DNA from: Gamarada debralockiae
Lineage: Eukaryota > Ascomycota > Leotiomycetes > Helotiales > Hyphodiscaceae
DNA length: 64,000 nucleotides
Assembly (NCBI GenBank): GCA_002803225.1
Contig: NXFV01001905.1
Location: forward strand, 43,037 to 107,036
Reading direction: 5' to 3'
The first letter of the stretch is position 1. Each line of letters opens with the position of its first letter. Positions 14,421 through 16,692 of the stretch are shown here, one piece after another. The notes beneath the pieces are model-generated. The model made no database searches and had not been told where the DNA came from. It was given only the letters and a program-made list of their open reading frames with translations. Both the position numbers and the translations under genes were made by a program.

Positions 14421-14600
14421 CTTTCATTGGCAAGTCATGGCTTGCGAAGACGACGTTTCTAGCAACCTACTTATGATGGCACAGGATTTGATAGCCGGTC
14501 TACAGCACACTGCCAGCGTGCTCTCATTGGCAAGTCATGATCTACGAAGATGGCTTTTCAACGACCTACTTATGATGATATAGGCTTGGACGATACTCAT
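14421..14600 (+). repeat. Imperfect tandem duplication, period about 99 bases
   Basis: The units beginning cattggcaagtcatg at 14425 and at 14525 share about 65 bases, including cctacttatgatg at 14466 and 14565. The second unit supplies the ATG and about the first 14 codons of the MazG-like frame. Confidence 0.75.
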
Positions 14601-14936
14601 CTCTACTGTGAACTCATGGTTAGCAAGGCGGTCCACGACACCCTCGCGGCATTCGTCGCTGAACGCGATTGGGCGCAGTTCCACACTCCAGAGAACCTCG
14701 CCAAGAGCGTTGCGATCGAAGCCGGCGAACTACTCGAGTGCTTTCAGTGGGGCGCCGAAGCTGACCCGAAGCGCGTACGTGAAGAACTTGCAGACGTACT
14801 GACCTACTGTTTGCTTCTCGCTGATCGCATCGGAGCCGATCCTGAGCAGATCGTGCTGGAGAAGCTCGAAATCACGCGCAAGAAGTATCCCGTTGACAAG
14901 GCCCGAGGAAGCAGCAGAAAATATGATGAACTCTAA
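14550..14936 (+). CDS. MazG-like nucleotide pyrophosphohydrolase of bacterial type
   Basis: An intron-free frame of 128 residues. The MazG/dCTPase-type metal site is intact: an ExxE pair at residues 57-60 in AIEAGELLECFQW and an ExxD pair at 79-82 in REELADVLTY, separated by 18 residues. The flanks AERDWAQFHTPENLAKS and the C-terminal KYPVDKARGSSRKYDEL match bacterial all-alpha NTP pyrophosphohydrolases, which hydrolyse (d)NTPs to monophosphate and pyrophosphate. The first 20 residues are not part of the domain and come partly from a local duplication. The frame is richer in GC than its surroundings and lacks the introns found in nearly every neighbouring gene. It overlaps or abuts the next frame as in a bacterial operon. 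Horizontal transfer is the best reading; which nucleotide it uses cannot be told. Confidence 0.85.
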   Translation: MAFQRPTYDDIGLDDTHLYCELMVSKAVHDTLAAFVAERDWAQFHTPENLAKSVAIEAGELLECFQWGAEADPKRVREELADVLTYCLLLADRIGADPEQIVLEKLEITRKKYPVDKARGSSRKYDEL

Positions 14937-14937
14937 A

Positions 14938-16692
14938 ATGGCGCGGCTTGAATTCTCCAAAGCTGCCGTTACAACGTGGAAGTTCCACGACGAGAAACAT
15001 GGCAACTGGCCTGTCGTGTATATATTGGACGATGGCCGTGACACCGCACAGGCCAATCCGAACAAACTGAGGGACATCTATGTTGGGGAATCGCTCAACG
15101 CCGCGGGCCATCTGCGTCAGCACCTCGAAACACCCGCGAAACAGCACCTCAAGAGTATTCGCGTCATCATCGATGAAAAGTTCAACAAGTCGGTTTGCCT
15201 TGACTTAGAGTCCTGCCTCATCAAAATGTTGGCAGGCGACGGTGCCAATCGGGTGCTCAACCGAAATAACGGGATCACGGAGTCCAAATACTACCAACGC
15301 GAGATGTATCGCGAGGGCTTCCGCAATATCTTCGAACAACTCAAGGCCGATGGCATCTTCACGCGAAGTATCCCCGAAATCGAAAACAGCGACCTGTTCA
15401 AGTTGTCACCCTTCAAAGCGCTGACGGAAGATCAAGCAACTTCGGTAGAGGAAATCGTCAAGGGGTTCCTCATTGACGTCGAGAGAGACGCCAAAAGCAT
15501 GATTGTGATCCAGGGCGATCCGGGCACTGGCAAGACGGTCGTGGCCATATATATGATCAAATTGCTCGTCGACATCAAGACATTCACTTCACTTGAAGAT
15601 CTGGACAGTGACTCGCGATTCTCTAACTTCTTCACCGAAACCAATCAGAGGCTTCTCCAGGATCTCCGCATCGGCCTGGTCGTGCCGCAGCAATCGTTGC
15701 GAGACTCCATCAAGAAGGTCTTCCGGAAGACGCCTGGGCTTAACCCCTCAATGGTCATGACCCCCTTCGACGTGGGACAAGTAGATGGAATTTTCGATCT
15801 GCTATTGGTTGACGAGACTCATCGGCTCAATCAACGTGCTAACCAACCATCGGGAGTGCTCAATGCCAAGTTCGCAACCATCACAAGAGAGCTTTTTGGC
15901 AGCGACGATACCAGCAAGACTCAACTTGATTGGATACGGGCGAAGAGCCGACATCAGATCTTCCTTTTAGACGCAGCACAGAGTGTTCGACCAGCCGATC
16001 TGCCCTCGGAGCTGCTATCGGACCTCGTTGCTGACACTCGTGCGTCGGGACGGCATTTTCAGCTTCGGACTCAGATGCGCGTACAAGCGGGATCGGACTT
16101 CGTGTCTTACGTTCGCTGGATTCTCGATCCTCGTCCTCTCTCGGTTCCACAAGTGAGACGAGATTTTGGGGAATATGATTTCCGCGCGTTCGACAGCGTT
16201 GCACACATGCGAGACGAAATTTTCCGACGCAATGCCGAAGTGGGCCTTTCACGCATGGTCGCTGGCTACGCATGGGAGTGGAAGACAAAAAGGGACAAGA
16301 ACGCGTTCGACATCGAAATCGGCCATACGCGGCTCTGCTGGAACAGCACCCCGACCGACTGGATTGCTTCTAGCAACGCGCTCGAGGAAGTGGGATCGAT
16401 TCATACGGTTCAGGGATACGACCTGAACTACGTTGGTGTCATCATTGGTCTTGATCTACGATTCGACCCTGAGCGAAGGCGTCTTTTCATTGATCGCGAC
16501 TCGTACTTTGACAAGAAGGGCAAGGAGAACAACCCGGTTCTCGGCAGGACCTACTCGGACGATGACCTGCTGCGATTCATCACGCAGATCTATGCCGTGC
16601 TCATGACGCGCGGGATCCGGGGAACGTACGTTTATGCGTGCGATCCCGGTTTGAGGGAGTATCTCAAAGCTTTCATTCCTTCCCATTCTTGA
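14938..16692 (+). CDS. GIY-YIG nuclease-DUF2075 helicase-like ATPase of bacterial type
   Basis: An intron-free frame, 584 residues from ATG 14938 (ATGs at 14923 and 14926 are alternatives that overlap the preceding stop). Residues 1-130 form a GIY-YIG-type domain: VVYIL (26-30), IYVGES (47-52), Arg60 in AGHLRQH and Glu91 in CLDLES. ENSDLFKLSPFKAL leads into a DUF2075/superfamily 1-like motor: Walker A GDPGTGKT (193-200), Walker B DLLLVDETHR (287-296), FLLDAAQSVRP (342-352), HTVQGYDLNYVGVI and a final LMTRGIRGTYVYACD. This domain order is well known in bacterial DUF2075 proteins, often in defence or mobile regions; their substrate is not established. No stop or frameshift breaks it. The end overlaps an antisense NLR-type fragment. 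Expression in a fungus is uncertain because no separate promoter is visible before it. Confidence 0.88.
   Translation: MARLEFSKAAVTTWKFHDEKHGNWPVVYILDDGRDTAQANPNKLRDIYVGESLNAAGHLRQHLETPAKQHLKSIRVIIDEKFNKSVCLDLESCLIKMLAGDGANRVLNRNNGITESKYYQREMYREGFRNIFEQLKADGIFTRSIPEIENSDLFKLSPFKALTEDQATSVEEIVKGFLIDVERDAKSMIVIQGDPGTGKTVVAIYMIKLLVDIKTFTSLEDLDSDSRFSNFFTETNQRLLQDLRIGLVVPQQSLRDSIKKVFRKTPGLNPSMVMTPFDVGQVDGIFDLLLVDETHRLNQRANQPSGVLNAKFATITRELFGSDDTSKTQLDWIRAKSRHQIFLLDAAQSVRPADLPSELLSDLVADTRASGRHFQLRTQMRVQAGSDFVSYVRWILDPRPLSVPQVRRDFGEYDFRAFDSVAHMRDEIFRRNAEVGLSRMVAGYAWEWKTKRDKNAFDIEIGHTRLCWNSTPTDWIASSNALEEVGSIHTVQGYDLNYVGVIIGLDLRFDPERRRLFIDRDSYFDKKGKENNPVLGRTYSDDDLLRFITQIYAVLMTRGIRGTYVYACDPGLREYLKAFIPSHS

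What the first reader, a model, noticed from the sequence alone, without database searches (positions are those of the whole stretch)
14550..16692. Bacterial MazG + GIY-YIG/DUF2075 gene pair in a fungal chromosome
Seen: two intact intron-free frames, an NTP-pyrophosphohydrolase with a complete ExxE/ExxD site and a GIY-YIG-DUF2075 protein with Walker A, Walker B and later helicase motifs, arranged head to tail and GC-rich compared with the flanks. Known: such proteins are typical of bacteria, where DUF2075 and MazG-like genes often sit in defence or mobile regions. Inference: horizontal transfer of a small operon that may have acted against phage or damaged nucleic acid, now carried by a fungus. 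Intact frames point to recent arrival or to selection.
Basis: partly seen in the sequence, partly recalled or inferred. Interest (0 to 1): 0.92.

Follow-up and report, generated by a model that had tools for sequence, protein, structure and literature searches.

The report
Bacterial overlapping gene pair in fungi
A fungal chromosome carries two bacterial genes that still overlap exactly as they do in soil actinobacteria, and close relatives of the pair occur in distantly related fungi, so the pair was taken from bacteria long ago, was probably passed on between fungi, and may be read as a two-gene message of a kind eukaryotes are not expected to use.

Summary
The frames are real: a MazG-like, dCTPase-type gene (native start 14616, stop 14936) and a GIY-YIG plus SLFN-group-3 helicase gene (14923-16692), overlapping by 14 nt. 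They are single copy in a Helotiales-like genome, between a host repeat and a fungal gene fragment, so contamination is unlikely. The 80 bacterial relatives kept are all Actinomycetota (61 Microbacteriaceae, up to 70% identity); 62 of 80 have the same 14-nt overlap. The window, all 24 named relatives among the 120 best protein hits (all fungi) and the metagenome rows form one clade. Dothideomycetes are rejected as a clade (AU p 8e-5), and the window copy is 95-97% identical to that of Cenococcum, in another class. This fits one old acquisition from bacteria, then fungus-to-fungus transfer. New: the overlap is retained, with an ATG-free first cistron, a weak first ATG and strong second ATGs, as leaky-scanning bicistronic translation would need (inferred; no RNA data; an upstream strong ATG at 14550 counts against). 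Also, this copy alone has His at the GIY-YIG catalytic-Arg position, so its nuclease is probably dead. A defence role is plausible from bacterial context but untested.

The parts
14129..14268 (.). copy of a high-copy host repeat of about 140 nt
   Evidence: 37 scored matches in the own genome
14270..14593 (.). fungal repeat directly upstream of the pair, probable source of transcription signals (inferred)
   Evidence: C1111 83%, C571 76% reach the junction; C909 and C248 (74%) match only part. Beyond the junction C1111 matches C571 (81.5% over 92 nt) and nothing in the window
14594..14615 (+). 22-nt leader before the MazG ATG, shared with some relatives
   Evidence: N-terminal extensions of P0123, P0124, P0126, P0127 (inferred from protein)
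14616..14936 (+). MazG-like (dCTPase-type) gene, 106 aa; in-frame ATG also at 14550
   Evidence: PF12643 E 1e-20; DCTPP1/RS21-C6 4e-20; no ATG between 14616 and 14923
14923..14936 (+). 14-nt overlap of the two frames, same as in bacteria
   Evidence: 62 of 80 bacterial loci; 61 of 80 by match coordinates
14923..16692 (+). GIY-YIG + SLFN-group-3 helicase gene, 589 aa
   Evidence: PF09848 E 1.8e-63; model pLDDT 86
15013..15267 (+). GIY-YIG domain, about residues 31-115
15109..15111 (+). codon 63, His where relatives have Arg
   Evidence: 118 of 118 ungapped fungal/metagenome rows and 78 of 78 bacterial rows have Arg
15493..16644 (+). helicase domain PF09848
16673..16948 (-). truncated PigL_N-type fungal gene fragment at the 3' junction
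   Evidence: PF17111 E 2.6e-7, 61 of 209 profile positions
17551..19083 (+). sen54, core fungal gene next to the pair
   Evidence: PF12928; Helotiales relatives

Best explanation
An overlapping two-gene operon of a Microbacteriaceae-like actinobacterium entered fungi once, long ago, and was kept as a unit; it then spread among fungi, at least partly by fungus-to-fungus transfer. In this Helotiales-like genome it lies behind a host repeat that probably supplies transcription. I propose that it is expressed as one bicistronic mRNA: ribosomes that skip the weak-context MazG ATG scan an ATG-free first cistron and start at the strong-context helicase ATGs; reinitiation across the overlapping stop may add to this. 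The products are a dCTPase-type pyrophosphatase and a nuclease-helicase, which in bacteria probably act on foreign or modified nucleic acid. In this copy the helicase looks usable but the GIY-YIG nuclease has probably lost its catalytic arginine. Shown here: bacterial kinship, one clade, retained overlap, ATG pattern, substitution. Inferred: direction and number of transfers, expression mechanism, function.
For: Bacterial relatives: all 80 kept loci (of 168) Actinomycetota, best 70%. Same 14-nt overlap in 62 of 80. One fungal/metagenome/window clade, 100/100 in 69 rows and 100 in 199 rows. Dothideomycetes and Sordariomycetes rejected as clades, p 8e-5 and 0.019. Window 95-97% identical to Cenococcum but 84-85% to Bisporella and Cadophora of its own class (classes). 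17 of 19 metagenome pairs have protein ends compatible with an overlap; shuffled N-termini 39 of 950. Zero ATGs in the first cistron: expected about 2, zero in 5-6% of codon resamplings; 3 of 80 bacterial loci have zero. -3 base C at MazG, A at the three helicase ATGs. Codon position differences 125/103/326 against L002.
Against: No RNA or protein data. ATG 14550 has a good context (-3 A) and is in frame with MazG, and ATGs at 14537, 14572 and 14575 also lie upstream: if they are in the mRNA, leaky scanning is harder. The ATG result is one sequence at p about 0.05, and only 7 of 14 relatives with a readable upstream codon imply C at -3. Leotiomycetes as one clade are not rejected, p 0.54. The trees are unrooted, so nesting inside bacteria is not proved by them. 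217 of 342 mismatched pairs were also overlap-compatible, so that test shows a conserved register, not adjacency. The hosts of the 96 metagenome rows are unknown. Single assembly, no reads.
Confidence: 0.55

Rival explanations
1. Same origin and spread, but each gene is made from its own transcript (or only one is made), and the retained overlap is inertia without translational meaning.
For: No transcript data. Polycistronic transcription in mushrooms may interfere with the downstream gene (PMC4503453 abstract). Helicase rows of Mycena, Alternaria and others are annotated alone.
Against: Both frames are intact, and the overlap register looks conserved in 17 of 19 metagenome pairs. A helicase promoter would have to lie inside the short MazG frame.
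Confidence: 0.2
2. Alternative splicing joins the frames: one mRNA form makes MazG, another fuses a MazG piece to the helicase.
For: 8 of 24 named fungal models fuse MazG sequence to the helicase. In the window 29 GT-AG introns would join the frames; one (14775-14835) has a good donor and a branch motif.
Against: Model junctions differ between species, and the two Cenococcum models disagree with each other. The best window intron removes half of the MazG active site. Two models delete part of the GIY-YIG motif.
Confidence: 0.12
3. Several independent and recent transfers from an unsampled bacterial clade into different fungi, instead of one acquisition and fungus-to-fungus spread.
For: All 24 named relatives listed are fungi, but 96 metagenome rows are of unknown host. 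Near-identical genes in different fungal classes would follow.
Against: No bacterium among 168 matches in one genome per species is above 70%. GC3 is well below that of the donors. Hypocreales and Mycena form own clades.
Confidence: 0.1
4. Contamination or misassembly.
For: Single assembly, no reads available.
Against: The 5' flank is a host repeat and the 3' flank a fungal gene fragment. GC3 lies between donors and host. Relatives lie on fungal contigs of megabase size, e.g. 33.7 Mb in Cenococcum and 8.5 Mb in Fusarium pseudograminearum.
Confidence: 0.02

Closest known systems
MazG-like + GIY-YIG/SLFN-g3 helicase gene pair of Microbacteriaceae (L002-L025 and others)
   Same: Gene order, 14-nt overlap and domain make-up; 60-70% protein identity in the best rows.
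   Different: The fungal clade stands on its own long stem (0.38), GC3 is lowered, and the window copy has lost the catalytic Arg. I found no published name for the bacterial pair.
Horizontal operon transfers into yeasts: enterobactin operon (Kominek 2019) and thiamine salvage (Goncalves 2019); seen only as cited in passages of PMC11952965 and PMC13376923
   Same: A bacterial operon in a fungal nucleus.
   Different: PMC11952965 says that in its cited cases the operon structure was not retained; here the genes still overlap. Here the spread reaches ascomycetes and basidiomycetes.
Leaky-scanning bicistrons of green algae (PMC11892635, abstract and outline)
   Same: Weak start context at ORF 1 and few ATGs before ORF 2.
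   Different: Fungus, bacterial origin, overlapping frames; no transcript evidence here.
IGG1/IGG6 bicistrons from Glarea lozoyensis (PMC10352335, passages)
   Same: Two proteins from one mRNA in a Leotiomycete.
   Different: There an intergenic element acts by reinitiation; here the frames overlap and there is no intergenic sequence.

Membership tests
MazG-like / dCTP pyrophosphatase (PF12643) | profile match above the curated cut-off and ExxE...ExxD | tested here: met
   74.2 bits against a cut-off of 27; motif by eye; DCTPP1 4e-20
MazG-like / dCTP pyrophosphatase (PF12643) | NTP pyrophosphatase activity | not testable with these tools
   no assay
Schlafen group 3 helicase domain (PF09848) | profile match with Walker A and B | tested here: met
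   215 bits against a cut-off of 24; GDPGTGKT and VDE present
Schlafen protein proper | N-terminal Schlafen core nuclease domain | tested here: not met
   no such Pfam match in the window protein or in 10 relatives; the N-domain is GIY-YIG
GIY-YIG nuclease (PF01541) | family and fold | tested here: met
GIY-YIG nuclease (PF01541) | catalytic Arg ten residues after the YIG tyrosine | tested here: not met
   His63 in the window, Arg in all other ungapped rows; its catalytic role in UvrC (R39) is recalled
Known anti-phage system (PADLOC) | strong match to a model | tested here: not met
   only weak partial matches, best 3e-7 to PDC-S41 and 1.2e-7 to PDC-S14 for L002
Leaky-scanning bicistron | weak context at ORF 1, strong at ORF 2 | tested here: met
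   -3 C at 14616, A at 14923, 14926 and 14938; but A at the upstream ATG 14550
Leaky-scanning bicistron | ATG depletion before ORF 2 | tested here: inconclusive
   0 seen, about 2 expected, p 0.05-0.06, one sequence
Leaky-scanning bicistron | one mRNA, both proteins made | not testable with these tools
   no RNA or proteome data

The most novel reading that the evidence does not exclude
A bacterial operon with overlapping genes has worked as a genuine bicistronic unit in fungal nuclei over long evolution, and moved between fungal classes and perhaps phyla as a small nucleic-acid-defence cassette, without being rebuilt into separate genes.
Probability: 0.4. Interest if true: 0.88.

Novelty: new variant of a known kind. 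Interest (0 to 1): 0.74.

Why it matters
How a eukaryote uses a bacterial operon after transfer is an open question; PMC11952965 (passages seen) says that in its cited cases the operon structure was not retained. This pair looks like a natural case, seen in many fungi, in which the bacterial overlap was kept, in species with cultures (and, to my recollection, public RNA-seq), so the question becomes directly testable. It also suggests that a module linked to restriction genes in bacteria has been adopted by fungi, where it could act on mycoviruses, mobile elements or the nucleotide pool.

Tried and rejected
Contamination: rejected on flanks, GC3 and the fungal clade. Viral source: the scan of viral contigs gave no relative among 27 pattern matches. 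RIP as cause of the window-specific changes: 11 of 14 are C:G to T:A, but one lies in TpG (CpA) and five at CpG, so RIP is not supported. Clean insertion into the upstream repeat: the other half of the repeat is not in the window and the downstream flank is unique in the genome, so only the 5' break is shown. Sequence search of PDB with the helicase: nothing at E 0.1. Foldseek with the N-domain: no E below 0.001; the VIA second look put GIY-YIG domains first.

Literature: searches gave no relevant paper; I saw the listed rows (5 of 5, 15 of 101, 12 of 82), none on this family in fungi. Supplements and most subscription journals were not searched, so 'not described' is limited to this.

Limits: the 19 metagenome pairs were matched by eye from equal longest-contig lengths in two lists of 120 and are not exhaustive. 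L026 and L028 translated short and were left out of trees and residue counts. Fungal classes were looked up for eight taxa; the others (Fusarium, Ilyonectria, Neonectria, Stachybotrys, Alternaria, Trypethelium, Mycena) are recalled.

Full report

HOST AND SITE. The window is part of a 107-kb contig in a 54.3-Mb, 1112-contig genome, and the helicase is single copy there. Other genes of the window are ordinary fungal ones: sen54, PAP2, arrestin-like, ZPR1, DBR1 and GDE1-like. The named sen54 relatives nearest to the window's are Helotiales: Hyphodiscus (80% over 55% of the query), Lachnellula and Mollisia (64%) (the last two recalled). The 5' flank 14270-14593 is a host repeat. Copies on C1111 (83%) and C571 (76%) reach the junction, and two more (74%) match part of it. 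Past the junction C1111 and C571 still match each other (81.5% over 92 nt), while this stretch has no match in the window, so the repeat is broken at about 14593/14594 where the bacterial pair begins. Next to it lies a repeat of about 140 nt with 37 scored matches. The 3' flank begins with a truncated PigL_N fragment and has no other copy. MazG rows P0124 and P0127 encode a leader like the window's, including the end of the repeat, in their N-terminal extensions; P0123 and P0126 share only the last 22 nt (inferred from protein). So the pair sits in different surroundings in different sources.

ORIGIN. A scan of one genome per prokaryote species found 168 relatives; the best 80 were kept. All are Actinomycetota, 61 of them Microbacteriaceae; the best is 70% identical. 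A MazG hit lies in 79 of 80 loci. The match coordinates give the window's overlap in 61 of 80; a direct search for a start codon with an upstream open frame ending 11-13 nt after it gives 62 of 80. Codon positions 1, 2 and 3 differ at 125, 103 and 326 of 584 codons between the window and L002, a pattern of long purifying selection. GC3 is 0.64, between five host genes (0.45-0.56) and four bacterial genes (0.76-0.87).

SPREAD IN FUNGI. Of 5115 protein hits the best 120 are listed; 24 carry an organism name and all are fungi: Cenococcum (2), Fusarium (4), Ilyonectria, Neonectria, Stachybotrys, Monosporascus, Westerdykella, Clohesyomyces, Alternaria, Trypethelium, Bathelium (2), Bisporella, Cadophora and Mycena (6). 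The other 96 have none. In a 199-row FastTree and a 69-row IQ-TREE (window, 24 named, 16 metagenome and 28 bacterial rows) the fungal, metagenome and window rows form one side of a fully supported branch (stem 0.29 and 0.38). The trees are unrooted; the direction from bacteria to fungi is inferred from operon structure, GC and distribution. Dothideomycetes as one clade are rejected (p 8e-5), Sordariomycetes too (p 0.019), Leotiomycetes not (p 0.54). The window copy is 95-97% identical to Cenococcum, a dothideomycete, and 84-85% to Bisporella and Cadophora of its own class. One old acquisition followed by transfers between fungi fits best; strictly vertical descent would need extreme slowing in just these two lineages.

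RETAINED OVERLAP AND EXPRESSION. I matched 19 MazG/helicase metagenome rows by equal longest-contig length. In 17 of 19 the protein ends can be encoded by one overlapping DNA: 13 at 11 or 14 nt, 4 at 26 or 29 nt; the other two helicases are called from a downstream Met. Shuffled N-termini are compatible in 39 of 950, but mismatched pairs in 217 of 342, so this shows a conserved register, not adjacency. Eight of 24 named models contain MazG sequence in one model with the helicase, which does show adjacency in those species. Their predicted splice junctions differ and the two Cenococcum models contradict each other, so I take the fusions for annotation artefacts. In the window no ATG occurs in any frame between the MazG and helicase starts. 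Codon resampling gives about two, and zero in 5-6% of draws; 3 of 80 bacterial loci have none. The -3 base is C at the MazG ATG and A at the three helicase ATGs. These are the features reported for leaky-scanning bicistrons of green algae (PMC11892635, abstract and outline). Against this, the in-frame ATG at 14550 has a good context and other ATGs lie upstream of 14616, and only 7 of 14 relatives with a readable codon before the start imply C at -3. Reinitiation is the alternative: an intergenic element from Glarea lozoyensis works that way (PMC10352335, passages), and yeast can be induced to do it (PMC11952965, abstract and passages). Polycistronic transcripts are common in mushrooms (PMC4503453, abstract), and in budding yeast the second gene of highly expressed bicistronic transcripts is translated less (PMC8573964, passages). 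PMC11952965 says that in its cited transfers of operons to eukaryotes the operon structure was not retained. If this pair is expressed as it stands, it is an exception.

THIS COPY. At residue 63, ten residues after the YIG tyrosine, the window has His where 118 of 118 ungapped fungal/metagenome rows and 78 of 78 bacterial rows have Arg. In UvrC the residue at this spacing is catalytic R39 (recalled). The window's is the only one of 16 N-domains that misses PF01541. It is also the window's only departure at columns at least 97% conserved, so the rest of the protein looks constrained; an assembly error is not excluded. Fourteen changes set the window apart from the consensus of 16 near rows, 11 of them C:G to T:A, five at CpG.

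VERDICT. Observation confirmed, interpretation partly supported. An old bacterial operon, still overlapping in fungi, is a new variant of known horizontal operon transfer and makes a directly testable claim of bicistronic expression.

Noticed in passing
15109-15111: His at the GIY-YIG catalytic Arg position, a CpG transition seen in no other ungapped row of 196.
   Followed up: yes
14129-14268: High-copy repeat of about 140 nt, 37 scored matches in the genome, family unknown.
   Followed up: no
14421-14590: Imperfect direct repeat (spacing about 100 nt) just before the MazG gene.
   Followed up: no
16673-16948: Truncated PigL_N-type gene fragment, antisense, ending in the helicase 3' end; it may mark what the insertion cut.
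   Followed up: partly
P0054 and P0081 (protein hits): Helicase models of Fusarium ambrosium and Neonectria ditissima begin with a similar long non-MazG extension, possibly a real fusion to another fungal gene.
   Followed up: no
L016, L027, L031, L010: In bacteria the pair often lies near C5-cytosine methyltransferases, Vsr and MzaC-like genes; it may be an undescribed restriction-linked system.
   Followed up: partly
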